Origin: Methylococcus capsulatus
GTDB lineage: Bacteria > Pseudomonadota > Gammaproteobacteria > Methylococcales > Methylococcaceae
Direction of reading: 5' to 3'
Assembly (NCBI RefSeq): GCF_036864975.1
Contig: NZ_CP104311.1
Span: forward strand, 908,001 to 972,000
Length of the DNA stretch: 64,000 bases
Shown here in pieces: positions 20,225 through 34,276 of the stretch. Positions within the stretch are counted from its first letter, which is position 1. Each line of letters opens with the position of its first letter. The notes beneath the pieces were generated by a model. The model did no database searches, had not been told where the DNA came from, and saw only the letters and a program-made list of their open reading frames with translations. A program made the translations under genes and the position numbers.

Positions 20225-20235
20225 TGAAGGGGAGT

Positions 20236-20266
20236 GAGATAAATGAACGGGAATGTGTGAGATAAA
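20236..20266 (+). promoter_or_regulatory. Left-end transposase binding sites (two tandem copies)
   Basis: GAGATAAA occurs at 20236-20243 and 20259-20266, 23 bp apart, the first 11 bp from the element end. The right end holds the mirror arrangement. Identical distances at both ends argue that these are recognition sites for the MuA-type transposase, by analogy with Mu end sites. Confidence 0.75.
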
Positions 20267-20343
20267 CGGGAAGAACAGGGATGAAGAAGGAAGAAACGGA
20301 ACGTCAAAACGAAAAAACGTTTCACACGACGCAACAACACAAA

Positions 20344-20880
20344 TCAGCCGATCGCGGCCTGAATGTGCTCCTCAAGAATCGCGGCGATCTCTTCCCGGTC
20401 GGCATCGGACAAGCCGACAAACGGCCTCGCTGGGATATCGCCCCAGGGAATCGGATGTCCTTTCTTTGAGCCGGCATGGCGCCTGAAGTCGTTCTTGTCG
20501 TACTTCAAACGCGACAGCTGGTAGTACCTTCCGAACTCGCCCATCGCCGCACCGAACTGATGAACAGCCCCGTAGATCCTGTCGGTGCCGAACAGCAGGC
20601 CATCGTCCTCGATCTGGTAGTGAAGGGAATTGCGCAGATGCCCTTCGAGCACCAGCACCTTGTCCTGGTGTTGTGGCTTGATAGCGCGGTAGGACTCTGA
20701 CAGCGGCGCCCACTTCGAGCCATCCGGCGCTTCCCCCGCGGCGAAGCGTTCATCGTGGGACCGCTCAAGATAAGCGCCGATGTCACGGAGCGCGGCTTCC
20801 GGATTGCCGATCAGGCGCGCCAATTCCGCCAGGGCCGTCCTCGCGTTTTCGTCATCGACCCGAATGAACGTGCCGGCCAT
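20344..20880 (-). CDS. Phage virion morphogenesis protein (Mu gpG type), intact copy
   Basis: 178 residues. Landmarks are DIGAYLERSHDERFAAGEAPDGSKWAPL, GAVHQFGA and GDIPARPFVGLSDAD, diagnostic of the gpG/tail-completion family. Mu gpG acts late in head-tail joining. It is the last gene of the leftward late arm, 119 bp from the phage left end. In Mu the protease gene follows gpG; here the phage simply ends. A second, diverged and broken gpG lies at 43723-44247 on the opposite strand, directly before the protease. Confidence is high for the family. Confidence 0.88.
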   Translation of the reverse strand: MAGTFIRVDDENARTALAELARLIGNPEAALRDIGAYLERSHDERFAAGEAPDGSKWAPLSESYRAIKPQHQDKVLVLEGHLRNSLHYQIEDDGLLFGTDRIYGAVHQFGAAMGEFGRYYQLSRLKYDKNDFRRHAGSKKGHPIPWGDIPARPFVGLSDADREEIAAILEEHIQAAIG

Positions 20881-20886
20881 CGCGAC

Positions 20887-21219
20887 TCAGTAGGTCACAG
20901 TGACATCAGGAAAACCATCGAGACCATGGGGTTCAGAATCCTCGATCACCGGGTACGCTGCAGCCAAATCAGGCGGCAGCTTCCATGTGTAACCCAAAAG
21001 CGCAGCGAACTCGGTACGGTTCCGTAGCGGATCGGTCGCTCTAATCGAGCTCGGGATGGGGTGGCAGCCGATGTAGCCCTGCTTCATTACATAATCCGCC
21101 ATCTCTTGCACGATGGCTGCATCAGGTCCGCGAACTTCGCCCGTCTCTTCATCCCAAGAAAATTCGATAGGGTCGAAAGCTCTTGGAGTCATCGGTTCAA
21201 GACGAAAATCACGGAACAT
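20887..21219 (-). CDS. Hypothetical phage protein between gpF and gpG
   Basis: 110 residues, acidic (SWDEETGEV, VIEDSEPHGLDGFPDVTVTY), with no membrane segment and no domain I recognise. It overlaps the end of the gpF gene by 11 bases and stops six bases before gpG starts, so it is read in the same late operon. It includes GCHPIPSSIRATDPLRNRTEFAALLG. The position suggests a head or head-tail accessory role, but no function can be given. Confidence 0.6.
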   Translation of the reverse strand: MFRDFRLEPMTPRAFDPIEFSWDEETGEVRGPDAAIVQEMADYVMKQGYIGCHPIPSSIRATDPLRNRTEFAALLGYTWKLPPDLAAAYPVIEDSEPHGLDGFPDVTVTY

Positions 21220-22735
21220 AATGGAAGAGCACCCCTATCACCAAGTTGAACAACTCTCGATCACGAACCAATAATCTAGTAAAGCTAACCGCGTCGCGCG
21301 GCGCCAGCACGGTTTCAAACGCCATGGTCAAAACTTCTAGAGCGCCACGGCCATCGTATTCCTTCCCGAAATAGGGATCAATATAGTGATCCTCTCGGGC
21401 ACGTTCGTCTCTTCCGTAGGCAAGATCGGGTTTGAGGTCCTTCAGCCGTCGGAGCGGGTCGCCGTTGGTGCGCCGACGATGGAGCGCTTGAAACAGACCG
21501 TCCAGTTCCGGCATGGCCGACTGTAGACGGTGGGCCAGTTCATGAACCGCGCTGAATGGGTCATGACATCGGATATATCCAGCGTTGACGTCTCCCGGCA
21601 TCACACCGAACCCCTGTCTTTTCAGGTCGAGCATCTGGCCTCGGTAATCCCCTATCAGCGTCATGTGGAGGGCACGGGCCTCGGAATAGCGCCCATACAG
21701 CTTACCGAACGCATCGGCCTTACGCGTCCAACTATCCGGAAACTGGCGCGATGCCTCTTCCAGCAGGCGTTTCGCTTTGCTCCCGTTCGACCCATAGGGT
21801 GTCACGGCCGCAGCTGTCTGGGTTCCGACCTCCGTCTGCAGCACTTCTCGGAGCGCGGCGCGGAAATCCTCGGATGCCGTACCCGCCTTGCCTATCAACG
21901 CATCGGTCTTCAGGTTTCCGAGGCGGATCAATTCGTCCAGATCCTTCGATGTGATCCTGGGCGATAGCACCTCTTCCTTCAACTGTCGCCCAATCCCCGC
22001 CGGCAGCTTCGCCACCTTCCGCTCGATCTCCTTGCGCATCAGATCCGTGCGCGAGGCGCCCGGCGCGTAATCCCAGCCGGGATCGATGCCGTTCGGCACC
22101 CGGTGCACCTCGCCGGTCACCTTGTCCGTCCAGTCGTAGCTGCCATCGTCCGGCGGCGTATCCGGGCCGGTCTTGCCCATCCGTCGCAGATCCCGCTCGG
22201 CCAACGCGAACATCCGGCACTTGCAGCCCCAGCCGTTCGGCGGCCAATGGGTTTGCACCCAGGGGTCGTCGACGGCCATGACCAGTCCGTCCCAGCTCAC
22301 ATGCAGCGGACGCGGATGGGCGGATAGATCGGAGTGCTTGTACTCGAGGTACGGCCGCCATTGCTTGCCCGCCTGCACCTGCGCCCAGCGTCCGGCCTGG
22401 TAGGCGGTGCGCAGGTTGGTGTCGTAGATCAGCCGGGTGCGCCACGCGCGTCCGGCCGCTGTCGCTTCACCCTTCCAGCCCGTCCAGCCATGGCGGGCCA
22501 CGATCGCATCGAAATCCTTCCGGAATTCCGCCAGCGTCGTACCCTTGGACACCCCCTTGAGCACAGCTCCATGCAGGTCGGCCAGCAGATCGGCCTTGGC
22601 GGCGCCGGCCACCATGAAGCCGACGTCGTGCTCTTCCTTCCAGACATCCGCCCAGCGGTCGGTCGGGACCAGGTCTTTCCCGCGGAAGAACCGGATCGCC
22701 TCGTCGAATGGGAGAGAACCGTATTGCCCGGACAT
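21209..22735 (-). CDS. Phage head morphogenesis protein (Mu gpF / SPP1 gp7 type) with C-terminal HELAH domain
   Basis: 508 residues. Residues 1-190 are the gpF minicapsid family: PFDEAIRFFRGK at the start, RLIYDTNLRTAYQAGRW, and the HWPPNGWGCKCR metal-binding-like motif. Beyond the usual core the protein has a C-terminal extension with AVHELAHRLQSAMPEL (HELAH at 398-402), followed about 70 residues later by ALEVLTMAFE. That is the HExxH plus downstream Glu pattern of minimal zinc metallopeptidases. gpF proteins enter the head and some carry ejected or toxic C-terminal domains. The start overlaps the stop of the upstream gene by one base. Peptidase activity is inferred. Confidence 0.85.
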   Translation of the reverse strand: MSGQYGSLPFDEAIRFFRGKDLVPTDRWADVWKEEHDVGFMVAGAAKADLLADLHGAVLKGVSKGTTLAEFRKDFDAIVARHGWTGWKGEATAAGRAWRTRLIYDTNLRTAYQAGRWAQVQAGKQWRPYLEYKHSDLSAHPRPLHVSWDGLVMAVDDPWVQTHWPPNGWGCKCRMFALAERDLRRMGKTGPDTPPDDGSYDWTDKVTGEVHRVPNGIDPGWDYAPGASRTDLMRKEIERKVAKLPAGIGRQLKEEVLSPRITSKDLDELIRLGNLKTDALIGKAGTASEDFRAALREVLQTEVGTQTAAAVTPYGSNGSKAKRLLEEASRQFPDSWTRKADAFGKLYGRYSEARALHMTLIGDYRGQMLDLKRQGFGVMPGDVNAGYIRCHDPFSAVHELAHRLQSAMPELDGLFQALHRRRTNGDPLRRLKDLKPDLAYGRDERAREDHYIDPYFGKEYDGRGALEVLTMAFETVLAPRDAVSFTRLLVRDRELFNLVIGVLFHYVP

Positions 22736-23940
22736 CAGCCGATAACAGCCGGCAGCTCGATCGAATCGGCGTCCACCCCGGAGAACTCAACCCAGGGGCC
22801 GGCACCGCGTCGCACGTCGAAACGCGCCTTCGGATTGCGCGGGATCTCCAGCGTTGCAATACCGTTGGCATCGCTCAATGCTTTCATGACTTGCGCGGAA
22901 TACGCACCTTTTGATCCAACGGCATCGCGCATCCGAATCACGACTTCGACCCCCGCCACCGCTGCACCATGAACATCGTAGCAATACGCCAAGGCGACTG
23001 TTTTGGTGGGACCGGAGGGAGCCGGGATGGATATCACTGGGCCAGACGGTACGTTGTACACAATTCGATCGTTGATCGCCTGTACCTCGGAGGCGATCCC
23101 TGAGATCGTAGGGTCGGATGCGAGGTCTGCCGCTGTGATATACCCGGTTCCGACGGTGTCGTCAGTTGGAACTCCAACAGATACTCGGGCCGGAGGCGGG
23201 ACAGCCAGTGAACCGGTGTAGGCGGCGTCGCCGTAAACTGTGCCGGAACGGACGTTGGCCTGCGCTGGGACAACTAAGGCTGTTGGGCGGCATACCTCTA
23301 TCGTGCCGTCCTCAAGCACCACTTCAAATTTTCGGTGGGGCACATTAAGCATTCGACACCCACCGCTTGTGTTTACACCCACAGAGTAGTACGGCGCTGG
23401 CCCCGATAGGGCCTCTTCGTAGTAGGCGATAGTTGTAATAGCGACAGCGCCGATCCCAGTCGCTGCAAACCCAGCTCCGGAAATGGCGCGTTTCACCCAT
23501 GCCTTCCCCGTGCCGTAAACATAGAGCCCCACGGATGACTGACCAGAACCTCCGTAAACGTCGCCGATGATGTGCAGGTCACCCGCTACGCGATGGGTAA
23601 TGCCCATGATGTTTGTCCCCGTCCCTCCGTGCGAGTCTCCGACGATATAGGAAGTCTCTCCGGCAACGCCGGTATATTGCACGCACCCGTATTCGATCAG
23701 GAATTCCGATCCAGCGTAAATGTTCGCCGTTAGTGTCCGGTTGCCGGGTAGCTGGAATCGCCCGCCCTGTACCGCTCCGCCTGTCGCATCGTTCCGGACC
23801 TCCGCCAGCGTCCAATCGACGTCGATAACGATGGATTTGCCGTTCGCAACCGCGACGTCCCCCGGCCCAGGCACGACCCCACCAGCCCACGTTGCGGGGG
23901 CGCTGGCATTACCGTTCTGTGCCGCGAGGATGATGGCCAC
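22735..23940 (-). CDS. Fibre-like beta-structured phage protein
   Basis: 401 residues. The N-terminal half is Gly/Thr/Val-rich with repeated beta strands (PATWAGGVVPGPGDVAVANG, then GGRFQLPGNRTLTANIY), like G8-type or beta-helical surface proteins. The C-terminal 90 residues (VALAYCYDVHGAAVAGVEVV to LEIPRNPKARFDV) look like an Ig/carboxypeptidase-regulatory-like domain. It lies between portal and gpF, where Mu has no gene, so it is an added late gene. A head fibre or decoration role is a reasonable guess. I see no catalytic motif. Confidence 0.6.
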   Translation of the reverse strand: MAIILAAQNGNASAPATWAGGVVPGPGDVAVANGKSIVIDVDWTLAEVRNDATGGAVQGGRFQLPGNRTLTANIYAGSEFLIEYGCVQYTGVAGETSYIVGDSHGGTGTNIMGITHRVAGDLHIIGDVYGGSGQSSVGLYVYGTGKAWVKRAISGAGFAATGIGAVAITTIAYYEEALSGPAPYYSVGVNTSGGCRMLNVPHRKFEVVLEDGTIEVCRPTALVVPAQANVRSGTVYGDAAYTGSLAVPPPARVSVGVPTDDTVGTGYITAADLASDPTISGIASEVQAINDRIVYNVPSGPVISIPAPSGPTKTVALAYCYDVHGAAVAGVEVVIRMRDAVGSKGAYSAQVMKALSDANGIATLEIPRNPKARFDVRRGAGPWVEFSGVDADSIELPAVIG

Positions 23941-23943
23941 GGC

Positions 23944-24246
23944 TTAATACCCTCGGGCGGTGATAAACGCTTGGATGGCTGGGAGGATCGCTGCCATAGC
24001 AGCAGCCAGCACAGGATCGGTCTCGGCCTGTGCGTAGCAGGCACCAACGCCCTCCTGCCGAATGCCGGCAGGGTTGGTGTCTAGCGTGCCATCCGGGAGG
24101 TAGCGGTACGGAGTCAAGCGGAGCGACATCGCCCCCTCGATGTTGTTGGCGATGACGACAGGGGCGAGGGTAAGCTCAACCAAGTACTTGTCGTAGGGAA
24201 TCTCCGGATGTACGACCGTTGACGGTGAGGTTGCTAGGATAGGCAT
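23944..24246 (-). CDS. Hypothetical phage protein
   Basis: 100 residues from the ATG at 24246, chosen because GGAG lies seven bases upstream; an ATG at 24258 has no ribosome site. The sequence MPILATSPSTVVHPEIPYDK, EGAMSLRLTPYRYLPDG and a C-terminal Ala-rich helix (AAAMAAILPAIQAFI) resemble small proteins found beside phage fibre genes. It is probably an accessory of the 401-residue fibre-like protein that follows four bases later. Function unknown. Confidence 0.55.
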   Translation of the reverse strand: MPILATSPSTVVHPEIPYDKYLVELTLAPVVIANNIEGAMSLRLTPYRYLPDGTLDTNPAGIRQEGVGACYAQAETDPVLAAAMAAILPAIQAFITARGY

Positions 24247-24288
24247 GGGGTACTCCATTCAAAATTGCAATTAAGGTCGACGGCGATT

Positions 24289-25944
24289 TCATTCCCCCTG
24301 GCGGACTTCGAATTGCCCCGCCATTCGGGCCGCGAACATCCCCTGCGCCATGAATTCCGCGAAGTCGCGGGCGTCCATCGCGGCGAATAGAGACGGTAGC
24401 GACTCGCCGAATTCCGCCAGCGTCTGGCCGTCGGCAATCGCCTGGTAGAGCGCCGTGCGGATCGGATCGAGCAGCCCTTTTTCGATCAGCGGCTCGGCCT
24501 CTCGTCCGAGGCGCTCGACGTATTGGTCGACCACGTCGGGTGCCGGGTCGGCTTCGGCCAGATCAGCGCTGTTATTTCGCGGCGGAGCCGCTCCCACAGA
24601 GGCTGCCAACCCTCCCAGCCCCCCCTTATCAGGGGGGGGTGTTGTGGGAGCGGCTCCGCCGCGATCAAGGATTGGCAAGCTGCCGTTGTCCGGCGGCGGC
24701 GCAGGCTTCACTTCCTCCCACTCCCCGCCGTAGGTCTCCTTGACCTCTTTCAGGGTCGGCTTGTAGCCGATGTCGAACACGTTCTTGTCGCGTTCGGAGC
24801 GAGCCTTCAGGTCTTCCGGTTCTTCGACGTCGCGCCAGACCTTCGGGTAGGCCGCGCCGGGGTAGTTCCAGTCGACCAGCCAGCGAATGAAGGACCGGTT
24901 GGCCGACTCGCAGATCAGATCCGCATCGGCTTTGACCAGGTCGCGGCGGACGTCGGCGGCATTGCTCTCACCGCCCAGCCGGCCGGGCGTGGCGTCGGTG
25001 CTGCCGGTGTGGCCCAGCACCACCTTGCTGATCGCGGCGTTCATGCGGTCGTACAGCGCGGTGTAATCGGCGGTGCCGGAGCGGGCGGCTTCGATCAGCT
25101 CGATCTGCATGCCCTCGGGAATGATGACCCCGGAGTCGCGCTGGATCGCCCGTACCGCGGACAGCAGCCTGCGTTTTTCCGCATCGGTGGCGCCGGGCTG
25201 ATAGGTTCCCTTGCCGGTGGGCATACCGAACTTCTCCAGGAAGATCAGCCAGAACTTGATGTCGTTCTTTTTGAAGAAGGTTGGCCAATACAGCCAGTGT
25301 CCCAGTCCCAGGCCGTAGGGTTCGTCGTCGTGGTCGGCGCCGGTGGCGAACACCCAGAACTTGCGCTCGGGCATCAGCTCGCCCTGGGCGTTGCTGCCGG
25401 TCAGCAACCGCAGGCGAAAATCCCCGTCGAAGGCAAACCGGCGCCGGTCGCGCACCTTCACCGCATCCAGCACGATCTGGGCGCCGTCGCGCGCCCACAG
25501 GCACTCGGCCACCGCCCAGCCGTAGAACACCCCGTACAGCATCTTGTCGGTGCGCTGGTCCCAGCCGATGTGCTCGAGCTGGGCCTTGATGAAATCCGCA
25601 GCCTGCTTGTCGATCCGCTTGGTGCCGCCGGGTTCCACGTCCCATTCGGCGGAGGTCACGGCGCTGCGGCGCTGGCCGAACGAGGTTTGCACCTGGTCGT
25701 CGCGCAGCACCTCTGCGTAGACCTTCAGGTCCCCGCCCTTGGCCTGCAGGATTTCGTCCGAGGACGGCAGGATCATGTCCGGGTGGATGTAGCCGCGGGT
25801 GACGTCGCGACCGTCGTGGGTGGTCGCTATCTCGTCGAATTCCGGGCCGGCGGTCTCCGCCAGCTCGGCGAAGGGTGGCAAGGGCCTGCCGTGAGCGGAG
25901 TCGAATGGTGCGGCAGCTCGAGCGATGTAATCCCAGAATCCCAT
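24289..25944 (-). CDS. Phage portal protein (DUF935, Mu gp29 type)
   Basis: 551 residues. The N-terminus (GFWDYIARAAAPFD, IHPDMILPSSDEILQAKGGD, RRSAVTSAEWDVEPG) and the middle (GVFYGWAVAECLWA, LEKFGMPTGKGTYQPGA) are typical of DUF935 portals, the dodecameric DNA gate of the head. It lies between terminase and gpF as in Mu. Residues about 427-456 derive from an inverted pair of REP-like palindromes (24577-24664), giving RGGAAPT and VGAAPPRN flanking a Gly/Pro stretch. The frame is kept. The start is one base from the terminase stop. Confidence 0.9.
   Translation of the reverse strand: MGFWDYIARAAAPFDSAHGRPLPPFAELAETAGPEFDEIATTHDGRDVTRGYIHPDMILPSSDEILQAKGGDLKVYAEVLRDDQVQTSFGQRRSAVTSAEWDVEPGGTKRIDKQAADFIKAQLEHIGWDQRTDKMLYGVFYGWAVAECLWARDGAQIVLDAVKVRDRRRFAFDGDFRLRLLTGSNAQGELMPERKFWVFATGADHDDEPYGLGLGHWLYWPTFFKKNDIKFWLIFLEKFGMPTGKGTYQPGATDAEKRRLLSAVRAIQRDSGVIIPEGMQIELIEAARSGTADYTALYDRMNAAISKVVLGHTGSTDATPGRLGGESNAADVRRDLVKADADLICESANRSFIRWLVDWNYPGAAYPKVWRDVEEPEDLKARSERDKNVFDIGYKPTLKEVKETYGGEWEEVKPAPPPDNGSLPILDRGGAAPTTPPPDKGGLGGLAASVGAAPPRNNSADLAEADPAPDVVDQYVERLGREAEPLIEKGLLDPIRTALYQAIADGQTLAEFGESLPSLFAAMDARDFAEFMAQGMFAARMAGQFEVRQGE
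24577..24664. repeat. Inverted REP-like pair inside the portal gene
   Basis: GTGGGAGCGGCTCCGCCGCG appears at 24644-24663 and its near-perfect reverse complement at 24577-24597. Between them a C7/G8 hairpin (24619-24639) separates the arms. The same palindrome recurs in and near other phage genes (29234-29297, 33756-33776, 34213-34262, 47136-47193, 56699-56719). Confidence 0.9.
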
Positions 25945-25945
25945 C

Positions 25946-27358
25946 TCAATACCCCTCGAAGTCGTTCAGCCCGGACACGGTGCCGAAGCCGCGGTCGGTG
26001 AGGGCCAGCTCGTTTTCACCGGCGTCGATCACGGCACGACGGCCGCCGATGGATTGGAAGTCGATCGGTGCGACGGGCGAACTGGCGGCATTGAGTGCCA
26101 GGAAACAAGCCCAGGCGCGATCGGCGTGGCCGGCGCTGTCCGAGTCGGCGACGAATCGCGGGGCGCCGGTGGCGGAGGTCTCCTTCTTCAGCTTGTGCAG
26201 ATCGTTGCGGAGCTCCTGGTTCCCTTCCGGGATCCGGACCCGGCGGTCTTCGAATGCCTCCTTCCCCGTGGTTGCCAGCGCCAGTTTGTTGGGGCCGGTG
26301 AATAGAACGCCCTCAACGCGGCTGGTGCCGAAGCGGCGCTGTGCATCTTCGACAGGCTTCTCGCCCATCCCCGTCTGGTCCATGCAGCAGCGTATGACCC
26401 GGTAGCGATTGAACGCATCAGCCAGCAGCGCGTCCTGCTCAGCAAATGAAATACGTCGCCTGGCTAGAATCTCACGTGTCCAATACACATCGCCTACGGC
26501 CTCCAATACCCAAATCACGAACAGGTCGTTGCGCGCCGCGATGTCGACGCCGAGAAAACAAGGGCCGCCGGCATAGTGCTCGGGGATGCCGGCGTGGTCG
26601 TGCTCGACCGAATTGATCAGTTCGAATGACAGCCAGGCGGACGCTTCGTCCAGCCATTGCAGCTCGAATTCCTGCGCCCAGGCGTCCTCGTCGTTCAGCG
26701 CCGCCCGCATCTCCTCAATGTCGCGGGGCAGGCCATCCGCGACGGCCTGGTAGATGTCGACCACGTGGCGCGACCAGGCCGAGTCCTCGGCGGTCGACAG
26801 GTCGTAGAACTTGTTGCCTTTGCCGTTCGGCGTGCTGGTCACGCGCAGCTTGAATCCGGCGGAGATAACCGGAAACAGCGCCGTCCATATCTTGCGGGAA
26901 TCCTGGTGAAAGGCGAACTCGTCGAGAAAGACGTTGGCCGAGAAGCCGCGTGCGGTGTCCGGGTTGGCTGGCAGCGCGGTGATCTTGTTGACGATCTTCC
27001 CGCGATCGGTGAACACGACTTGCAGCGCTTTGCGTTTGATGCCCGAGTCGGCGTCGTACCACTCGACTTCTTCTTTGCCGACGCTCTTCGGATTAAGGAG
27101 AGCATTGGCAGACGTCATGTAGGATTCGAGGTGACGGAATACGCCTTCCTCCATCGCCTCGCGCGCTTGGCGTTCGCCGCGGGACAATATGACCCACGGC
27201 GAACGTTTGCCGGCTGCGGTCGCCTCTAACACATCATCGACCACTTCTAACGTGGTAGTGAAGGTCTTGCCGGTTTGCCTGGCGAAGCGGCCCAGCTTGA
27301 ACCGGGAACGATCTTTCAGCCAGCGCTGCTGGTAGGGGTAGAGGGTGACTGATGTCAT
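25946..27358 (-). CDS. Terminase large subunit (Mu gp28 type)
   Basis: 470 residues. YQQRWLKDRSRFKLGRFARQTGKT holds the Walker A-like motif near residues 23-32. VFLDEFAFHQD is Walker B, and CFLGVDIAARNDLFVIWVLE starts the RNaseH-like nuclease with its first Asp. This motor cuts and packages DNA into the head. It overlaps the small-terminase-like gene by four bases and is followed by the portal. No truncation is seen. Confidence 0.9.
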   Translation of the reverse strand: MTSVTLYPYQQRWLKDRSRFKLGRFARQTGKTFTTTLEVVDDVLEATAAGKRSPWVILSRGERQAREAMEEGVFRHLESYMTSANALLNPKSVGKEEVEWYDADSGIKRKALQVVFTDRGKIVNKITALPANPDTARGFSANVFLDEFAFHQDSRKIWTALFPVISAGFKLRVTSTPNGKGNKFYDLSTAEDSAWSRHVVDIYQAVADGLPRDIEEMRAALNDEDAWAQEFELQWLDEASAWLSFELINSVEHDHAGIPEHYAGGPCFLGVDIAARNDLFVIWVLEAVGDVYWTREILARRRISFAEQDALLADAFNRYRVIRCCMDQTGMGEKPVEDAQRRFGTSRVEGVLFTGPNKLALATTGKEAFEDRRVRIPEGNQELRNDLHKLKKETSATGAPRFVADSDSAGHADRAWACFLALNAASSPVAPIDFQSIGGRRAVIDAGENELALTDRGFGTVSGLNDFEGY

Positions 27359-27921
27359 ACCAGCCCGTAGACCTCCTGCCGGATGATCCGCAGGGTCTCG
27401 GCATCGAGCTTTCGAGCGCCCGGCACAGTGCCGGCCGCCTCCGCTTCAAGTCCAGCGATTTTCGACTCCAGCTCCTTTCTTAGAGACGACCGCCACTTCT
27501 TCATGGCAATGGTTGAGCGTGCCTGATCCGCATTGGCCCTATTTATCAGCGACAAGAGCTTGCCGTAGTCCTCCGGCGCCATGTCATCTCTCAGCTTTCG
27601 CAATCGATAAAGGAACCGGAGATTTTCTGCGGCGACAGCATCGTTCGTGGCGTCTTGAATCGACCCGTCGTCGTCGGCCGCCACGGATTTTGCGGCTTTG
27701 ATCGTATCCAGGATGACTCGTCGCTCGGCCATCTCGTTCTCGTATTCCTCCTTGAAATCGGCGCCGTGCCGGTGCAGTGCGGATGTACCGATGCTGTAGC
27801 CTTGCGACGCCAACCACTCTGACAGCCCGGCGTAGCCACCGAAACCGGACTCCACCAGTCGTGCGTTGAGCTCCTCACGGATTTCACGTGGCAGCTTATT
27901 GACCGCTTTGACGCGCGGCAT
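27355..27921 (-). CDS. DUF3486 phage protein (Mu gp27-like, small terminase role)
   Basis: 188 residues from the ATG at 27921, which overlaps the preceding stop as TGATG; a reading from 28029 adds an out-of-place N-terminus. MPRVKAVNKLPREIREELNARL and YSIGTSALHRHGADFKEEYE are typical of DUF3486. A helix-turn-helix-like start and long helices follow. It is placed directly before the large terminase, as in Mu-like phages, so it is the likely DNA-recognition subunit. That role is established for the position rather than shown here. Confidence 0.82.
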   Translation of the reverse strand: MPRVKAVNKLPREIREELNARLVESGFGGYAGLSEWLASQGYSIGTSALHRHGADFKEEYENEMAERRVILDTIKAAKSVAADDDGSIQDATNDAVAAENLRFLYRLRKLRDDMAPEDYGKLLSLINRANADQARSTIAMKKWRSSLRKELESKIAGLEAEAAGTVPGARKLDAETLRIIRQEVYGLV

Positions 27922-28211
27922 CAGCCCGTCTCGCCCGGCAACGGCCGCCGAATGCCGGGAATCGCCCGTGTACCTTCCAGCGCTTCCAGGCCCTCCATCG
28001 TCAACGTGGCGATATGTACGCCCTGGCACGCGGTATCGAGTACAGCATCGGCATTGGCACTCAGCCAGGCCAGCTCGATCTTGAGCTGGTCGCGGTTCAT
28101 GGCATGGCCAGCGTTACGCAAGGCGGCGAGTAGCACCTCTTGATTGGTGGTGTAGTTGGGCTGCTCCCGTAGAATCTTCAGGATATGGAAACGCACGTCC
28201 TCGCGATTCAT
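27921..28211 (-). CDS. Winged-helix-like phage protein (Mu gp26-like position)
   Basis: 96 residues beginning MNREDVRFHILKILREQPNY, with a helix-turn-helix-like spread (TNQEVLLAALRNAGHAMNRD) and a beta wing (GVHIATLTMEGLEAL). Such small winged-helix proteins occur between the DUF2730 and DUF3486 genes of Mu-like phages. Both ends overlap their neighbours by a few bases. DNA binding is likely, target unknown. Confidence 0.7.
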   Translation of the reverse strand: MNREDVRFHILKILREQPNYTTNQEVLLAALRNAGHAMNRDQLKIELAWLSANADAVLDTACQGVHIATLTMEGLEALEGTRAIPGIRRPLPGETG

Positions 28212-28606
28212 AACTTGCTCCCTTGGTGCATCATCAATCCTGTGAGCCGGTCCAAATTGGTCAGCACTTGAGTGACCTGGCCAGCCATTTGCCCAACCTG
28301 ACCCTCCATGCGACTGAGCTGCGTCATCAGGCCATCCACGCGCCGGTGTACTGCTGCCAGGTCGTCATGTTTGATAGCGTTCTCGGCCGCCATTTCCAGC
28401 GCAGAAATGCGCTCGGAGTGCTGCCCCAACCGGTGCATGGCTTTTTCCTCCAGCGTTTTGGTTTCGCTGGACGCACTCTTTTGCACCGCCTTGAGCTCGT
28501 CGGTAGCCGCCTTGCTGCGATTGCTGACCTGAACCCAGGCCACGACGCCGAAGTTCATCATGAACATCAAGACGGTCCAGAAGTTGAAGTCGAACGAAAC
28601 TGTCAT
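28208..28606 (-). CDS. DUF2730 phage protein (Mu gp25-like)
   Basis: 132 residues. One N-terminal membrane segment (FWTVLMFMMNFGVVAWVQV) is followed by a long coiled coil (LKAVQKSASSETKTLEEKAM, then RMEGQVGQMAGQVTQVLTNL). This is the DUF2730 plan seen in Mu-like phages just upstream of the terminase genes. It starts by ATGA-type overlap with the preceding zinc-finger gene. Its function is not known; membrane anchoring suggests a lysis or assembly accessory. Confidence 0.8.
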   Translation of the reverse strand: MTVSFDFNFWTVLMFMMNFGVVAWVQVSNRSKAATDELKAVQKSASSETKTLEEKAMHRLGQHSERISALEMAAENAIKHDDLAAVHRRVDGLMTQLSRMEGQVGQMAGQVTQVLTNLDRLTGLMMHQGSKL

Positions 28607-28857
28607 CGCCGCGCCTCCGCTGCCAAATAGCGCTCGTGCTCAACCTGGCAGTCCATACAGCGAATCGCCGTCGGATAGGCATCGAGCCGACCCTGTGGAA
28701 TCGGCGCCTCGCAGTCATAGCAAATGATCGTCGGCGCACCGTCTTCGCCGGCAACCACGACCTGCGGCATGTCCGGCTTCATCATGTCCAGCGCAGCGCG
28801 CCGGTTCAGCTCGAGCTCTTGCTCGATACGATCTTCCGCAATGTCAGCGGCGTCCAT
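28603..28857 (-). CDS. TraR/DksA-type C4 zinc-finger protein
   Basis: 84 residues from the ATG at 28857 with GGAG upstream; the longer frame from 28920 lacks one. The N-terminal helix MDAADIAEDRIEQELELNRR is followed by a C-terminal zinc finger, ICYDCEAPI and IRCMDCQ (two CxxC knuckles). Short TraR-like proteins bind RNA polymerase in the secondary channel and are common between lysis and terminase genes in Mu-like phages. It may tune late transcription. Confidence 0.85.
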   Translation of the reverse strand: MDAADIAEDRIEQELELNRRAALDMMKPDMPQVVVAGEDGAPTIICYDCEAPIPQGRLDAYPTAIRCMDCQVEHERYLAAEARR

Positions 28858-29074
28858 CCTGATCTCCGATTTCACACGACAGGCCGGCCCCGAATTCCGT
28901 CGGCTGTTCGCCAGGAACAAATCCCGATGCGCCAGGGAACGTCATGTAGCCGGTCGGCGAACAAGCCAAGCAGCCGCATCCGGGCAATGCGAGTTCCGCC
29001 AGCAAGGTAGCTCCGATTAGCGCAGCGTAATCGGAGGAAATCCGCTGCGTGCGATTACGCTGCGCTAATCGCAC
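28844..29074 (-). CDS. Doubtful small ORF beginning inside a palindromic repeat
   Basis: 76 codons if read from the GTG at 29074, but the first roughly 20 codons come from the palindromic repeat 29011-29074. The C-terminal half (CGCLACSPTGYMTFPGASGF, then VPGEQPTEFGAG) looks like protein and overlaps the zinc-finger gene start by 14 bases. It may be the remnant of a small phage gene whose beginning was replaced by the repeat. I would not rely on its start. Confidence 0.3.
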   Translation of the reverse strand: MRLAQRNRTQRISSDYAALIGATLLAELALPGCGCLACSPTGYMTFPGASGFVPGEQPTEFGAGLSCEIGDQDGRR

Positions 29075-29078
29075 CTAC
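29007..29078. repeat. Paired palindromic repeat (second family)
   Basis: Two hairpins, 29011-29036 and 29049-29074, are near mirror images. Each has a CGATTA/TAATCG stem around GCGCAGCG, and the pair is bounded by GTAG and CTAC. It supplies the TAG stop of the lipoprotein gene at 29075-29077. Structure and pairing are those of dispersed REP-like elements. Confidence 0.85.
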
Positions 29079-29428
29079 CGGCCCTCCCGACACACCCGGA
29101 TCGCCTCGCGGGCGCGGGCATAGCCGAATAGCAGCACCTTGCCGCCCGCATCGGCCTGGGGCGGCCGGCCGGGGGCGATGGCGATGAAGACGGTCGAGGC
29201 CAGCGGCGGCAGCTCTGGCAGAGCACAGGTATTTCGCGGCGCAGCCGCTCCCGCCGGGGAAAGAGCTACCGGTTCTGTGGGAGCGGCTCCGCCGCGCTCC
29301 GGAAACAGTGCCTTCGGCCCGACCTGTACACATCCCGCCAGCGTTAGCGACAGCGCCAGAATCGCCGCGGGCGGGAATCCGTTAACGCACCCCAGGCACA
29401 CGGTCCACCCCCGCTTCCACATCCTCAT
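29075..29428 (-). CDS. Small lipoprotein of the lysis cassette (outer spanin-like)
   Basis: 117 residues from the ATG at 29428, or 115 from 29422. A signal sequence with lipobox (AILALSLTLAGC) gives Cys near residue 33 for lipid attachment. The mature part is Pro-rich and ends AREAIRVCREGR. It overlaps the endolysin gene by 47 bases, like nested outer-spanin genes. Residues about 44-65 come from a REP-like pair (29234-29297), and its stop codon lies in a second repeat family, so the original C-terminus may be lost. Spanin function is inferred from context. Confidence 0.6.
   Translation of the reverse strand: MRMWKRGWTVCLGCVNGFPPAAILALSLTLAGCVQVGPKALFPERGGAAPTEPVALSPAGAAAPRNTCALPELPPLASTVFIAIAPGRPPQADAGGKVLLFGYARAREAIRVCREGR
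29234..29297. repeat. Inverted REP-like pair inside the lipoprotein gene
   Basis: The arms at 29234-29254 and 29277-29297 are reverse complements of the GTGGGAGCGGCTCCGCCGCG family with one or two changes. They encode GGAAPT and GAAAPRN in frame. Confidence 0.88.
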
Positions 29429-29807
29429 GCTTGAGCCAGCGCTCGCACGCCATCGCGCCGTTCTCGTGGGTACAGACGGCCCAGATCAGCAGGGTGAGCG
29501 TCTTCCGGTCGAACAGGTTGATCGTGTGATCCGCGTCCACGTCGAGCGCTTGCGCGACCCGTCGGACATAGGTGGCGGTGTCGTTCTCATTGGGCGGCGC
29601 CCAACGGGTGATGATCTGGCTGACGGTGTGGAGCTTGTGCTTCCTCTGGTAGTTGAGCAGCGTCACCCCCAGCGCCCGCACCCCGTTCTCCATTTGCTCG
29701 AACCGGACAAACCGTTCGTCGTGGCCGATCTGGCCCTCCCAAGCATTGCGCGGGTTGTAGACGAGATTGCCGGGATTGTTGTTGCGCAGGCCCCGCGGCT
29801 TAACCAT
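29382..29807 (-). CDS. Phage muramidase-like/virion lysis protein
   Basis: 141 residues. The N-terminal RGLRNNNPGNLVYNPRNAW, followed by RFVRFEQMENGVRALGVTLL and SQIITRWAPPNENDTATYV, is the signature of the structural-protein/transglycosylase family used as endolysin in many Mu-like phages. It lies between the holin-like gene (eight-base overlap) and the lipoprotein gene. No signal peptide, so export would need the holin. The exact bond cleaved is not evident. Confidence 0.78.
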   Translation of the reverse strand: MVKPRGLRNNNPGNLVYNPRNAWEGQIGHDERFVRFEQMENGVRALGVTLLNYQRKHKLHTVSQIITRWAPPNENDTATYVRRVAQALDVDADHTINLFDRKTLTLLIWAVCTHENGAMACERWLKHEDVEAGVDRVPGVR

Positions 29808-30045
29808 GCTGCTGCCTCCGCACGAACGCCGCGAATTCCTCGTCGGTCATGTCATCCCCTCGCCCTTGGGGAAAGGAAGCCGGGGCGATGCCGGCTTTTT
29901 CGATCTTGTGGCCGACGCCCGCGATGCCGATGCCTTGCACGATGAACTGCATGGCAATGTCCGCGCCGTGCAGGCCGAGCAGCCAGCCCAGCAGGCCATA
30001 GATGACCGAGACGATCGCGGCGGTTTTGGTCTTCCAGCCGGTCAC
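29800..30045 (-). CDS. Holin-like small membrane protein
   Basis: 81 residues. Two hydrophobic stretches (AAIVSVIYGLLGWLLGLHG and AMQFIVQGIGIAGVG) are followed by a charged tail with DDMTDEEFAAFVRRQQ. Size, topology and place directly before the endolysin fit a phage holin. It overlaps both neighbours by a few bases. Confidence 0.65.
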   Translation of the reverse strand: MTGWKTKTAAIVSVIYGLLGWLLGLHGADIAMQFIVQGIGIAGVGHKIEKAGIAPASFPQGRGDDMTDEEFAAFVRRQQHG

Positions 30046-30371
30046 GGCGCAGTCTCCACAGCCGGCTTCTCGGGCAGCACCCCGACCGCCATTTCGATGG
30101 CGCGGTTCATCATCCGGGCCGGAATCTGCTCCGCCCAGGCGATTTCCCGCGCCTTCAGCTCGCTGACAATCAGCGCAATGGCCGCCTGCTTTTTGGCTTC
30201 ACCGGACTTCGGCGCCCAGCTCAGCGAATCTTCGACGGCCTTGACCATCCGCTCCGTGATCGGCAGCAGAATTTCCCATTGCTGGCGAACGCCATCGGCC
30301 AGCATCGGCGCGAAATAGCGCCACAGAATCGGCCACGCTTTGGCGGCCAGATTGAGAATCCACGTCCACAT
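30042..30371 (-). CDS. First gene of the leftward late operon, unknown function
   Basis: 109 residues. A hydrophobic Trp-rich N-terminus (MWTWILNLAAKAWPILWRYF) and a helical remainder with SLSWAPKSGEAKKQAAIALI suggest membrane association. It is the first reading frame after the mor gene and the palindromic promoter element at 30407-30453. Upstream GGAGTACTCC contains its probable ribosome site, about 11 bases from the ATG. By place it could assist the holin; nothing more is visible. Confidence 0.6.
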   Translation of the reverse strand: MWTWILNLAAKAWPILWRYFAPMLADGVRQQWEILLPITERMVKAVEDSLSWAPKSGEAKKQAAIALIVSELKAREIAWAEQIPARMMNRAIEMAVGVLPEKPAVETAP

Positions 30372-30406
30372 TGGTTGGAGTACTCCGGGTTGTCGACTTC
30401 AACCGC

Positions 30407-30453
30407 AGAGTAAAGGGACGCAGGCAATCGGATCAGGCGGAAACGTTTCCGCC
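30407..30453 (-). promoter_or_regulatory. Predicted late promoter of the lysis-terminase-head operon with activator palindrome
   Basis: The perfect palindrome GGCGGAAACGTTTCCGCC (30436-30453) overlaps the last codons of mor. On the minus strand TACTCT (30412-30407) begins 24 bases after the palindrome, placing its centre near -44.5. No -35 is needed if a Mor-type activator recruits polymerase. The same palindrome, flank and spacing occur before the protease gene at 44465-44511. Confidence 0.6.
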
Positions 30454-30846
30454 GCAGGATTCGAACAGATCGATGTTGGGGGAGAATTCCTCGGCCTCAC
30501 CGAGGATGTTGCGGATTTGGCGCTCGCTGAGATGATGCCGCAGCGCCAGGGCGGCCTGGCTGTAACCCTGTGCGCGTTCGGTGCGGATCAGCACGTTACG
30601 GCAAAGCGTCATGTACCGGTCGGCCTTCGCGATTTCGGGCCGGTCGCCGCCCAAATACTCGGCGATGGCGCGCGCCGCGTCAATGCCGACCACCTCCACC
30701 AGCGGGTGATCGGGCTCCAGCTTATCGGCCACCGGCACATACAGCCGCGTCCCGCCCCAGCGCTTCGCAATCGCCAACGCCGCCGGGAAACCAGCGATTC
30801 TGGCGATGTCGGAGAGGACGCCGGGGAGGTCGATGGGTAGAGTCAT
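30433..30846 (-). CDS. mor: Mor-family middle/late transcription activator
   Basis: 137 residues from the ATG at 30846, which overlaps the gemA stop as ATGA; longer readings intrude into gemA. The motifs AKRWGGTRLYVP and LRHHLSERQIRNILGE (the C-terminal helix-turn-helix) are characteristic of Mor/C activators of Mu. Mor proteins bind dyad sites centred near -43 and recruit RNA polymerase. No second C-type gene is seen, so this one may drive both late operons. Its final codons (CGGNVSA) are formed by the palindrome that is its own likely target. Confidence 0.85.
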   Translation of the reverse strand: MTLPIDLPGVLSDIARIAGFPAALAIAKRWGGTRLYVPVADKLEPDHPLVEVVGIDAARAIAEYLGGDRPEIAKADRYMTLCRNVLIRTERAQGYSQAALALRHHLSERQIRNILGEAEEFSPNIDLFESCGGNVSA

Positions 30847-31334
30847 TGAGCGCGTGGACCTTCCGAGTCCGCCCGATCCTCCGCCTGCCGGGCGGCCCGG
30901 AATCCCCATTTTTTGAGCTGCTCGATCACCCGCGAGGCTTGGTGCTCGTCCAGCCATTGCAGCGCCTCCACGCCGGTCATGCGCTTCACGTAGGCGGCCA
31001 GGGCGGATTCGTTCGGGTCGCGCACGATCCCGGCCTGGTGCAGCCCCAGCCACAGCGCCCGGATTTTGCGCGACTGAGCCTCTTGGTCGACCGTCCGGCT
31101 TGTTGCCCCTCTCCCTTTGGGAGAGGGGTTGGGGTGAGGGCGCGTCTTATGCCGAACTTTGAACCCTTTGGCCTTAAGCGCCTCCAGGGCTTTTTCCAGC
31201 TCCGGCACGGTCATATCCGTCGTCGAGGTTTTGCCGGTGGCCGACTTCAGCAATAGACGGTAAACGTCGTCGCCGAGCCGCAGATCGCGCTTGGCGACGT
31301 GGATCAACTTGATCAGTTTCTGGCGCGGGTCCAT
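30843..31334 (-). CDS. gemA: GemA-like regulatory protein (DUF1018, Mu gp16)
   Basis: 163 residues. The N-terminus DPRQKLIKLIHVAKRDLRL followed by YRLLLKSATGKTS, and the C-terminus VKRMTGVEALQWLDEHQASR, are DUF1018/GemA signatures. GemA in Mu alters host gene expression and replication. Residues about 64-76 (RPHPNPSPKGRGA) come from a dispersed G/C hairpin repeat at 31106-31128 inserted in frame. Overlaps mor by ATGA and follows a helix-turn-helix gene at a one-base overlap. Confidence 0.85.
   Translation of the reverse strand: MDPRQKLIKLIHVAKRDLRLGDDVYRLLLKSATGKTSTTDMTVPELEKALEALKAKGFKVRHKTRPHPNPSPKGRGATSRTVDQEAQSRKIRALWLGLHQAGIVRDPNESALAAYVKRMTGVEALQWLDEHQASRVIEQLKKWGFRAARQAEDRADSEGPRAQ
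31106..31128. repeat. Dispersed hairpin repeat inside gemA
   Basis: CCCCTCTCCC (31106-31115) pairs with GGGAGAGGGG (31119-31128); the following GTTGGGGTGAGGG is typical of this widespread intergenic repeat. It encodes PNPSPKGRG in the gemA frame. Confidence 0.85.
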
Positions 31335-31540
31335 TAGAATGCCCTCGCAAACATGTCCGTCTGGGATTCCTTCCTGATCCGCCGCAGGCAGGCTTGCATG
31401 GCCCGGCCTTCCGCCCGGCCCTTCTTGTATTCAGCGTCCGTCAGCAGCTTGTATTGCCGCATCTGCCGCAGGGCGCGAGAGACCGTGCTGGGATGTAGCC
31501 CCAGCTCGGCGGCGATTTTCGTAATCGTCGTGCCCGTCAT
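31334..31540 (-). CDS. Small helix-turn-helix protein
   Basis: 68 residues. TTITKIAAELGLHPSTVSRA is a clear helix-turn-helix of the Lac/resolvase style, followed by a basic tail (KKGRAEGRAMQACLRRIRK). It sits in the early-middle operon between the BRO-N gene and gemA. Likely a DNA-binding modulator; target unknown. Confidence 0.7.
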   Translation of the reverse strand: MTGTTITKIAAELGLHPSTVSRALRQMRQYKLLTDAEYKKGRAEGRAMQACLRRIRKESQTDMFARAF

Positions 31541-31576
31541 GAACTTGAAGTGGATACGCTCCCAGGCCGGGTGCTT

Positions 31577-32044
31577 CTAGCACAGCGCTTTGACCACATC
31601 CCGGTAGGCGGCGTACCAGCCGGTTTCTTCGTGGCGGTGCTCGATCAGGTCCAGCGCCCATGCGCGGAACCGTCGGCCAACCTCCGTCTTGGCCAGCATG
31701 CCCAGCAGATAACAGCCGCGCAGACTGAATACGCGCACCTTAATTTTTCGGGTGTGGCGCTTCAGTTTTGCCCGACTACCACCCTCAGATTGAGGGTGGT
31801 AGTCATCGGCCCCGGCCTCGATATCCATCTCGATCACGGCGGTTTCTTTCTGCGTGAATTCGTCATCGTTTCGACCATACAGGGTGAGAACAGCATCGCC
31901 TGGGTCGGCAAATTCGAGCGCCTCGCCCACCGTTTTGGCGGTAAACCAAGGCTTCCCGTTCCGGTCGATCACCTTCAGGCTCTGGCCGTGAAAGTCGAGG
32001 TACAGCGGGCAGTAATCGCGATAGCGTAAGGTGAGCAAAGACAT
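31577..32044 (-). CDS. BRO-N domain (KilA/antirepressor-like) protein
   Basis: 155 residues. The first 100 residues follow the BRO-N fold: GQSLKVIDRNGKPWFTAKTV, ALEFADPGDAVLTLYGRND and the later VRVFSLRGCYLLGMLAKTE. BRO-N domains bind DNA in phage antirepressors. The usual C-terminal effector domain is absent; a short helical tail (EETGWYAAYRDVVKALC) ends the protein. It lies in the middle operon, 36 bases before the next gene. Confidence 0.75.
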   Translation of the reverse strand: MSLLTLRYRDYCPLYLDFHGQSLKVIDRNGKPWFTAKTVGEALEFADPGDAVLTLYGRNDDEFTQKETAVIEMDIEAGADDYHPQSEGGSRAKLKRHTRKIKVRVFSLRGCYLLGMLAKTEVGRRFRAWALDLIEHRHEETGWYAAYRDVVKALC

Positions 32045-32052
32045 GCGGCCTC

Positions 32053-32340
32053 CTAGTGCGTGACACGGTCGAGTTTCATGGCATGGATCAGTTCCTGGAC
32101 CGAAACATACCTATGGAATTCATCCAGCAGTCCTTGGTGCTTGGCACGCTTGAAGCGATGCTTTTTGAAAAGGCCAAGCAGAGTTTCCGCGTGGCTGAAG
32201 CCGCGTGCAGTCGCCATACCGAACAGACCGACGACGATATTGAGAGCACGCTCTTTCAGCTCGTCGTCGGCCTCCTCGTCATAGGCCGCGAAACAAAAGA
32301 GCTTGAATGTGGCGCTTAAAGAAAAAACAGTCTCAGACAT
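32053..32340 (-). CDS. Hypothetical early phage protein
   Basis: 95 residues, mostly helical, no recognised domain. It contains DEEADDELKERALNIVVGLF and HRFKRAKHQGLLDEFHRYVS. It overlaps the upstream gene by eight bases and is eight bases before the BRO-N gene, so it belongs to the same transcript. No function proposed. Confidence 0.6.
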   Translation of the reverse strand: MSETVFSLSATFKLFCFAAYDEEADDELKERALNIVVGLFGMATARGFSHAETLLGLFKKHRFKRAKHQGLLDEFHRYVSVQELIHAMKLDRVTH

Positions 32341-32581
32341 GACGATTCTCCGGAGAGTGGGGAAGCGAAGATAAAAGCCGGTCCCGCTCGTCTAGGACGT
32401 GCTCGAACTGCAGCGAGAGGATTTTGAAGCAGTGCCGCAGCATGTTTTCCATGTCGGCGTAGGCGTCGCGCTCCTCCTCTGCGAGGTCGGCAGGCGGAGC
32501 TTGACGTGCGGCCTTGGCGGCGCGGTAAGCGGCGAGGGAAATAACGGGCGCGCGCGGACGCGCAGGGGGTTTCTTGGCCAT
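32333..32581 (-). CDS. Hypothetical early phage protein
   Basis: 82 residues from the ATG at 32581, which has an AGGAGG-like CAAAGGAGGCC upstream; longer frames to 32896 read through a GC-rich structured stretch and are rejected. The basic N-terminus (AKKPPARPRAPVISLAAYRA) is followed by a helix with ERDAYADMENMLRHCF. Function unknown. Confidence 0.6.
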   Translation of the reverse strand: MAKKPPARPRAPVISLAAYRAAKAARQAPPADLAEEERDAYADMENMLRHCFKILSLQFEHVLDERDRLLSSLPHSPENRHV

Positions 32582-32859
32582 GAGGGCCTCCTTTGGTAGC
32601 GGTTGAAATCCGCCACACCCCCGACCAAGAGGGTGGACGGACCGGACAGGGTTGGTCGACCGGCCCAAAGGAAACCGGCACCCCCGAAGGGGTCCCCGCC
32701 CGGCCCGCCCATAGAGGGACGCGCCAAGGCGCTGCGCACAAAAAAGCCGCTTAGGGCGCGGCTGTGCGCCTTTGGTTTCCGGGCGACCAAGCCCGATCCC
32801 GGCATGAGGCCGGGACGGCAACAGGAAACCGCAACGCACGCGCCTTGTCAACATGGCGA
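32582..32859. other. 278-bp structured non-coding gap in the early operon
   Basis: No credible gene. It contains several inverted repeats: the terminator at 32734-32769, a CCCGGC/GCCGGG hairpin within a larger GGTTTCC...GGAAACC bracket (about 32773-32837), and GTCGAC-rich sequence near 32650. It separates the DUF3164 group from the middle genes and may hold a middle promoter, but I see no clear consensus. Confidence 0.55.
32734..32769 (-). terminator. Rho-independent terminator, minus strand
   Basis: On the minus strand AGCCGC (complement of 32758-32763), a seven-base loop and GCGGCT (complement of 32745-32750) form a hairpin followed by a run of T (complement of 32740-32744). An outer GCGCAC/GTGCGC pair can extend the stem. 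It would end early transcripts after the DUF3164 gene. Confidence 0.7.
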
Positions 32860-33519
32860 TCAAACCCCCGCCAAATCCATCGAAATCAGCCGCCACTCGT
32901 CGGCCTCGCCGAGGCGCTCGTAGACCATGATGTAGCTGGCCGTGCCGACCGACACGGTGGCATCGCCGATCGCCCGCATCGCCTCCATCCAGCGCGGGTC
33001 CTTAATGTCGAGCCGACGCAGGGACAGCACCCGGCCTGTGTTTATGCGTCCGGTCTTGTCGACCTGGAACGCGTCGTTCACCAGCGCCCGCAGCTCATCG
33101 CGAGCACCATCGCACCAATCGTGCAGACACTCGTCGATCAGCGCCTTCGCGGCCTGCAGCCGCTCGTCGAAGCGCAGCAGGTCCGCGTATTTGCGCTGCA
33201 CCTTGTAGCGCCCGTCGTAGCTGTAGAGCGTCAGGTTGCCCTTGCCGCCCTCCCGTGTGCCGCGGAACGTGACGCCGTATTGCTCCGCCGACAAATCGAC
33301 GAATGCGGCGATGTCGCCGAACGCATCCGCCTTGAAATCGCGCAGCAGTCCGCTGAGACCCATCGCCTTGCCGACGATCTCCCGCACCAATTGGTCACGC
33401 GCTTTGTCGATCGGCTTTACCAGCGTTTCCGGTACCAGCCGGCCCTCGGCGTCGCGCCAGTGCACGACGCCGTTGATGTCCTGAAACGACGACGCCGGCG
33501 CCGCTTGTGTGTGTGCCAT
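32860..33519 (-). CDS. DUF3164 early phage protein
   Basis: 219 residues from the ATG at 33519, with AGGAGG seven bases upstream. FQDINGVVHWRDAEGRLVPE, KPIDKARDQLVREIVGKAM and GGKGNLTLYSYDGRYKVQR are typical of DUF3164 proteins of transposable phages. Its role is unknown; Mu-like phages carry it between B and gemA, as here. It is followed by a terminator. Confidence 0.85.
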   Translation of the reverse strand: MAHTQAAPASSFQDINGVVHWRDAEGRLVPETLVKPIDKARDQLVREIVGKAMGLSGLLRDFKADAFGDIAAFVDLSAEQYGVTFRGTREGGKGNLTLYSYDGRYKVQRKYADLLRFDERLQAAKALIDECLHDWCDGARDELRALVNDAFQVDKTGRINTGRVLSLRRLDIKDPRWMEAMRAIGDATVSVGTASYIMVYERLGEADEWRLISMDLAGV

Positions 33520-33535
33520 GGTTAACCTCCTGCTC

Positions 33536-33697
33536 CTAAATACCCAGGTTGATGTCATCGGTGGCCGGGTGCCTCGCCTGTGCTTTGCGCTCGGCCCGGC
33601 CAACCAGGTTGATGTCCAGCACCGCACCGAGAAACAGCCCGGTACCGAGTCCAAACAGGAAGATCATCGCCATGCCGGCGAGAACGATGGTTTTCAT
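33536..33697 (-). CDS. Small single-span membrane protein
   Basis: 53 residues (MKTIVLAGMAMIFLFGLGTG, then LFLGAVLDIN...). One membrane helix followed by a short charged tail. AAAGGAGC precedes the ATG at 33697 at good distance and the start overlaps the upstream stop (33694), supporting a real gene. Role unknown. Confidence 0.6.
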   Translation of the reverse strand: MKTIVLAGMAMIFLFGLGTGLFLGAVLDINLVGRAERKAQARHPATDDINLGI

Positions 33698-34200: not shown

Positions 34201-34212
34201 GCCGCACCTCCC

Positions 34213-34262
34213 GTGGGAGCGGCTGCGCCGCGAAACGAAGATCGCGGCGGAGCCGCTCCTAC
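34213..34262. repeat. Inverted REP-like pair between two early genes
   Basis: Two family members, 34213-34233 and 34242-34262, in opposite orientation with an eight-base spacer. They occupy most of the 76-bp gap between the genes at 34200 and 34277. Confidence 0.88.
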
Positions 34263-34276
34263 TCTCTTGCGATGGG

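What the first reader, a model, noticed from the sequence alone, without database searches (positions are those of the whole stretch)
21209..22735. gpF with an added HExxH metallopeptidase-like C-terminal domain
HELAH at 398-402 and a downstream Glu in a helix are the minimal zinc-protease pattern, beyond the normal gpF core. As gpF is a head component it could be delivered into the next host with the DNA, for example to attack defence proteins.
Basis: inference. Interest (0 to 1): 0.65.

Follow-up and report, generated by a model that had tools for sequence, protein, structure and literature searches.

The report
Phage head protein carrying protease toxin
A Mu-like prophage has a minor head protein whose tail end is a separate zinc-protease-type domain followed by a small partner gene; the two look like a swappable toxin-and-antidote cassette of a kind already known in phages, but of a family that has no name yet.

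Summary
In detail: the gene (window 21209-22735, minus strand, 508 aa) is a Mu gpF/MuF head protein with HELAH at 398-402 in a separate C-terminal domain. AlphaFold2 of residues 300-508 (pLDDT 88.5, pTM 0.85) gives a zincin whose best solved matches are anthrax lethal factor domain IV and the PPEP proteases (Z 8-9.7), although no sequence model of a peptidase family matches. The domain belongs to a large family, seen in over 110 viral contigs and in prophages of many phyla. In 58 aligned full-length members R354, H398, E399, H402, E444, D449 and E467 are invariant.

It is not simply "gpF plus protease". In a same-genus prophage the gpF core and gpG are 91-95% identical in DNA, while the C-terminal domain plus the next small ORF (110 aa) is replaced by a divergent version. 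Other gpF relatives carry nothing, a nuclease, a JAB-like domain or another zincin. 84 of 98 family genes are followed by such a small ORF (controls 80/347); 58 of these 84 end in [IVLM][YF] (controls 0/80).

Best reading: a MuF polymorphic toxin-immunity cassette with an M34-like protease domain, packaged in the head. Toxicity, delivery, substrate and inhibition are inferred, not shown.

The parts
21209..22735 (-). gpF/MuF minor head protein with C-terminal zincin domain, 508 aa
22001..22735 (-). conserved gpF core (about residues 1-245), 94% aa identical in the same-genus prophage of G002
21212..21838 (-). residues 300-508: M34-like (lethal factor/PPEP fold) zincin domain
   Evidence: AF2; fold comparison; family
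21530..21544 (-). HELAH, residues 398-402 (predicted zinc ligands and catalytic Glu)
21332..21406 (-). residues 444-468: invariant E444, D449, PYxGKxY and E467 (E444 or E467 is the candidate third zinc ligand)
20887..21219 (-). partner ORF, 110 aa, overlaps the end of gpF by 11 nt, ends ...VTVTY; predicted immunity protein
20344..20880 (-). gpG, Phage_tail_S virion morphogenesis protein; marks the far side of the cassette
20882..22001 (-). exchanged cassette (domain + partner): no DNA similarity to the G002 prophage, flanked by 91% and 95% identical DNA; lower G+C (57% and 54% against 66% in the gpF core)
20225..63603 (.). complete Mu-like prophage, ends TGAAG...CTTCA, 6-bp target duplication CCGTAC at 20219-20224 and 63604-63609

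Best explanation
The C-terminal ~205 residues of this gpF are a zinc peptidase domain of lethal factor/PPEP-like fold, carried as an exchangeable effector ('MuF toxin') on the head protein. The overlapping 110-aa ORF is its cognate inhibitor. Proposed working: (1) gpF is placed in the procapsid through the portal (inferred from SPP1 gp7). (2) During lytic growth the co-translated partner keeps the peptidase off in the producing cell (inferred from gene coupling and co-divergence). (3) The head protein enters the next cell with the DNA without the partner, and the peptidase cuts cytoplasmic proteins there, helping take-over or the lysis-lysogeny choice (inferred). (4) A cell already lysogenic for the same phage makes the partner and is protected (inferred). 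Shown here: the domain, its predicted fold, the conserved active-site pattern, the partner, and the exchange of domain plus partner as one cassette.
For: Predicted zincin fold with 140-149 residues aligned to PPEP and lethal factor structures, Z 8.2-9.7, and the same result for a distant family member (Z 8.3-9.2, thermolysin 4.3). Active-site residues invariant across highly diverged members. Cassette swap between two same-genus prophages: core 94%, domain 46%, partner 35% aa identity. Related gpF proteins carry no extension, PBECR2 nuclease, RadC/JAB-like, another zincin or MuF_C-like C-termini. Small ORF behind 84/98 family genes against 80/347 for other large ORFs; conserved C-terminal dipeptide in 58/84 against 0/80. 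A modelled domain+partner chain of a relative gave pTM 0.85 with the partner body at pLDDT 88-97. MuF toxins with validated toxicity and binding-type immunity proteins are known (PMC12226406, PMC11699363), and 20% of predicted MuF toxins have a metallopeptidase domain (PMC5576092).
Against: No toxicity, cleavage, packaging or binding data. No sequence-level match to any known peptidase family. Foldseek E-values are weak (best 8e-3). The partner's conserved tail was not placed in the model (pLDDT below 50), so how the partner would inhibit is open. About one in seven family genes has no small ORF behind it, and versions with ~200 extra C-terminal residues are followed by ORFs without the tail.
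Confidence: 0.65

Rival explanations
1. The zincin is an assembly or self-processing protease: it trims gpF or other head proteins during maturation or after ejection, and the small ORF is its substrate or a head-completion factor rather than an immunity protein.
For: Zincin domains in polyvalent phage proteins are thought to process their own polypeptides (PMC5512222). The partner's conserved C-terminus would also fit a substrate or docking tail.
Against: Related phages with the same head genes lack the domain; the prophage has its own head maturation protease (44519-45601); domain and partner are exchanged as one unit.
Confidence: 0.17
2. The domain is an injected counter-defence protease that cuts a specific host defence or regulatory protein without general toxicity; the partner only prevents premature action in the producer.
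For: Head location and early timing; Jamet et al. suggest mild MuF peptidases could give resistance to defence or guide the lysis-lysogeny choice (PMC5576092).
Against: No defence target or link was identified; a dedicated partner argues for activity harmful to the producer itself.
Confidence: 0.14
3. Catalytically idle structural or binding domain that keeps the zincin fold only.
For: No activity has been shown; the third zinc ligand is not settled (E444 or E467).
Against: HExxH and several charged residues are invariant across highly diverged members while most other positions vary.
Confidence: 0.04

Closest known systems
MuF polymorphic toxins (Jamet et al. 2017, PMC5576092); tested examples Apk2 (PMC12226406) and Bxa (PMC11699363)
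   Same: MuF head protein with C-terminal effector domain, temperate phage packaging module, small ORF directly downstream, exchange of the C-terminal domain among related cores
   Different: Apk2 makes (p)ppApp and Bxa is an ADP-ribosyltransferase; here an M34-like zincin. Metallopeptidase MuF toxins were counted in 2017, but whether this family was among them could not be checked (supplement not readable). The [IV]Y-ended partner is not mentioned in the passages read.
Anthrax lethal factor domain IV and PPEP proteases (MEROPS M34 type)
   Same: Overall fold of the catalytic domain and HExxH
   Different: No sequence match (Pfam ATLF not hit); an insertion carrying PYxGKxY between the motif helix and the E467 helix; attached to a phage head protein
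Zincin MPTase domains of polyvalent proteins (Iyer et al. 2017, PMC5512222)
   Same: Zincin domain in a protein likely injected with DNA
   Different: Those sit in large multidomain proteins; here a simple MuF + zincin protein with a dedicated small partner. Relation to their 12 clades was not tested.

Membership tests
MuF polymorphic toxin | N-terminal MuF domain | tested here: met
   PF04233 residues 54-175, E 1.6e-14
MuF polymorphic toxin | C-terminal extension of at least 100 aa with a toxin-type enzyme domain | tested here: met
   about 205-260 aa; zincin fold; the enzyme activity itself not shown
MuF polymorphic toxin | small ORF under 150 aa directly downstream | tested here: met
   110 aa, overlapping start; 84/98 in the family
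MuF polymorphic toxin | same core carries different C-terminal domains | tested here: met
MuF polymorphic toxin | encoded in the packaging/head module of a temperate phage | tested here: met
   terminase, portal, gpF, gpG, transposase A/B, capsid; complete prophage in two copies
MuF polymorphic toxin | C-terminal domain shared with other polymorphic toxin families (Rhs, CdiA and so on) | tested here: inconclusive
   only MuF, one portal fusion, and proteins without a Pfam N-terminal domain seen
MuF polymorphic toxin | toxicity and its neutralisation by the partner | not testable with these tools
   needs expression
M34 (lethal factor/PPEP) peptidases | M34 catalytic fold | tested here: met
   predicted model, Z 8.2-9.7 over 140-149 residues, the top of the list is only PPEP and LF; repeated with L018
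M34 (lethal factor/PPEP) peptidases | sequence membership (Pfam ATLF PF07737) | tested here: not met
   no hit up to E 10, so it is called M34-like, not an M34 member
M34 (lethal factor/PPEP) peptidases | HExxH plus downstream Glu and catalytic Tyr | tested here: inconclusive
   HExxH, E444 and E467 invariant and Y440 conserved in over 90%; geometry could not be measured
M34 (lethal factor/PPEP) peptidases | proteolytic activity | not testable with these tools
   needs an assay
Polyvalent-protein MPTase | large multidomain polypeptide | tested here: not met
   only MuF plus zincin found

The most novel reading that the evidence does not exclude
A widespread, unnamed family of phage-head-delivered M34-like proteases is held in check by small partner proteins that share little but a free C-terminal [IV]-[YF] tail. 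The tail acts as a substrate- or product-like plug of the active site, so it would reveal what the protease cuts.
Probability: 0.3. Interest if true: 0.72.

Novelty: new variant of a known kind. Interest (0 to 1): 0.5.

Why it matters
MuF toxins are a recognised but little-tested class of phage-carried effectors; only a few have been studied at the bench. This family is large, has no Pfam model, spans phages of many phyla, and comes with a partner whose conserved C-terminus offers a direct handle on mechanism and substrate.

Tried and rejected
Alignment A1 was too diverged for the search for related loci; a degenerate DNA pattern worked instead. PDB sequence search with the family profile gave nothing significant (best E 0.2). 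Pfam, PHROGs and NCBIfam found no named family for the domain (three PHROGs of unknown function match it), and Pfam and PHROGs none for the partner. The idea that the partner's tail docks in the active site was looked at with a domain+partner chain of relative L018 (in-frame stop read as Gly): the partner body was confident but the last 9 residues were below pLDDT 50, so docking is not supported. A structural relative of the partner was not found, though it was not folded alone. Profile comparison with the other zincin of HS6/ZX4290 aligned only the HExxH helix. The host species was not identified.

Full report
What is there. The gene is on the minus strand, 21209-22735, 508 aa. Residues 54-175 match Phage_Mu_F (PF04233, E 1.6e-14) and 3-272 match phrog_220, minor head protein and DNA pilot. 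HELAH lies at 398-402. The gene sits in a Mu-like prophage that runs from 20225 to 63603, with ends TGAAG...CTTCA and a 6-bp target duplication CCGTAC. Terminase, portal, gpF, gpG, transposase, DNA transposition protein, head protease, major head protein and tape measure protein are all present. A second copy, 99.7-99.9% identical, lies inverted elsewhere in the same genome with its own duplication CCTGCC, and its gpF protein is identical.

The domain. tblastn with residues 305-508 found relatives in phages of Streptococcus, Bacillus, Flavobacterium, Planktothrix and Vibrio. In all five records opened the match ends at or near the end of its gene, and two of these genes are annotated as PF04233 or SPP1 gp7-type head proteins. 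All keep HExxH. A pattern built on a different stretch (D-x-[FY]-x-x-P-Y-x-G-K-x-Y) hit at least 120 viral contigs, and 117 of 118 informative hits also carry HExxH 45-88 residues upstream. In 80 non-redundant members R354 is 99% conserved, position 405 is E or Q in 99%, and E444, D449 and E467 are 100%. In 58 aligned full-length members R354, H398, E399, H402, E444, D449 and E467 are all invariant. The D449 and PYxGKxY residues are fixed by the search pattern, and HExxH was required when the 80 were chosen, so those columns are not independent evidence; R354, E444 and E467 are. 34 of 58 full-length members have PF04233 and no Pfam family covers the C-terminal domain in general. In named genomes the pattern gave 62 hits, 45 with HExxH, in Firmicutes, Proteobacteria, Bacteroidetes, Cyanobacteria, Armatimonadetes, Nitrospirae and others.

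Fold. AlphaFold2 on residues 300-508 with 40 rows gave pLDDT 88.5 and pTM 0.85; the HELAH helix is model residues 94-108 and E467 stands at the start of helix 169-178. Foldseek's top ten are lethal factor and PPEP-3 (E 8e-3 to 0.24). VIA-align gives PPEP-2 Z 9.7 (140 aligned, 3.4 A), lethal factor Z 9.2 (147 aligned, 3.6 A), and almost only these groups and related toxins in the list. A distant member, L018, gave PPEP-3 and lethal factor on top (Z 9.2 and 9.1) with IrrE at 5.0 and thermolysin at 4.3. The tool warns that Z near 8 can be a common arrangement; what counts here is that the matches are of one type, stand apart from other zincins and recur with an independent model.

The cassette. 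In a prophage of another species of the genus (G002, L008) gpF codons 1-245 are 90.7% identical in DNA and gpG to the prophage end is 94.5% identical, but the stretch between (20882-22001, the rest of gpF plus the next ORF) has no detectable DNA similarity. In protein, the core is 94% identical, the aligned part of the domain 46% and the partner 35%. G+C falls from 66% in the core to 57% in the domain and 54% in the partner. A gpF core 73% identical to this one (L004) carries a RadC/JAB-like end (weak match, E 0.015). Others end at 243-264 aa (YPCBV-1, where gpG follows directly, and L006), or carry PBECR2 (RR1-B), a MuF_C-like end (JBD67, weak) or a different zincin with a small ORF (HS6, ZX4290).

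The partner. ORF 20887-21219 (110 aa) overlaps the end of gpF by 11 nt and lies between gpF and gpG. It has no Pfam or PHROG match. Within 31 related genomes it occurs only beside the domain or a remnant of it, including one remnant where the domain is truncated but a 98-aa partner is open. Across the family 84 of 98 genes have a 60-130 aa ORF starting within -36 to +40 nt of the stop, against 80 of 347 other large ORFs in the same loci; 58 of the 84 end in [IVLM][YF], against 0 of 80 controls. After clustering at 50% identity, 34 of 57 end in [IV][YF] against 8 of 1215 other ORFs. The window's partner ends in VTVTY, a looser fit, and that of G002 ends in DAVA, so the tail is common, not universal. 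A domain+partner chain of L018 folded with pTM 0.85 and partner body pLDDT 88-97, which fits a defined placement of the two parts, but the last nine residues were below 50, so docking of the tail is not supported by this model.

Function. From published work, SPP1 gp7 is brought into the procapsid by the portal and supports early infection (PMC6316719). Jamet et al. predicted 191 MuF toxins, 20% with a metallopeptidase domain and 89% followed by a small ORF (PMC5576092). Two kinds have shown toxicity and immunity by direct binding (PMC12226406, PMC11699363). The evidence here fits that kind best. Inhibition by the partner, delivery, toxicity and the substrate are inference.

Known or new. The arrangement is known; this protease family and its tail-bearing partner were not described in the passages that could be read. 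By fold it may work like an M34 peptidase, but it fails the M34 sequence model and is not filed as a member.

Noticed in passing
window 22735-23940 and 23944-24258 (minus strand): Two ORFs of 401 and 104 aa lie between the portal and gpF, with no Pfam or PHROG match; in JBD25, JBD67, HS6 and YPCBV-1 gpF follows the portal directly.
   Followed up: partly
G000:C1 about 2419534-2420069 (L003, L213): Remnant holding the last 82 residues of a related zincin domain, an open 98-aa partner and the start of gpG; looks like an orphan partner left after prophage decay.
   Followed up: partly
window 20225-63603 and G000:C1 about 1935470-1978990: Two nearly identical Mu-like prophages in opposite orientation with different 6-bp target duplications, suggesting recent transposition or double infection.
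   Followed up: yes
L138 (HS6) and L141 (ZX4290): Related gpF proteins carry a different HExxH domain with weak resemblance to lethal factor (Pfam ATLF E 0.01-0.2) and their own small downstream ORF.
   Followed up: partly
L004:2989-4320 (+): gpF core 73% identical to the window's but with a RadC/JAB-like C-terminus (HNHPS motif, Pfam E 0.015) and a 54-aa ORF behind it.
   Followed up: partly
L152:238-3126 (-), Brasilonema: MuF protein with Hint/intein-type domains between the MuF part and the zincin domain.
   Followed up: no
L020, L021, L038, L048, L056, L057, L158, L190 and others: A subgroup has about 200 residues after the zincin domain, and the ORFs behind it lack the [IV]Y tail.
   Followed up: partly
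L070:963-3454 (-): Two zincin-bearing genes stand in tandem in one viral contig.
   Followed up: no
window 54724-55087: Direct repeat of about 190 bp with an offset of 174 inside the 2207-aa tape measure gene (seen).
   Followed up: no
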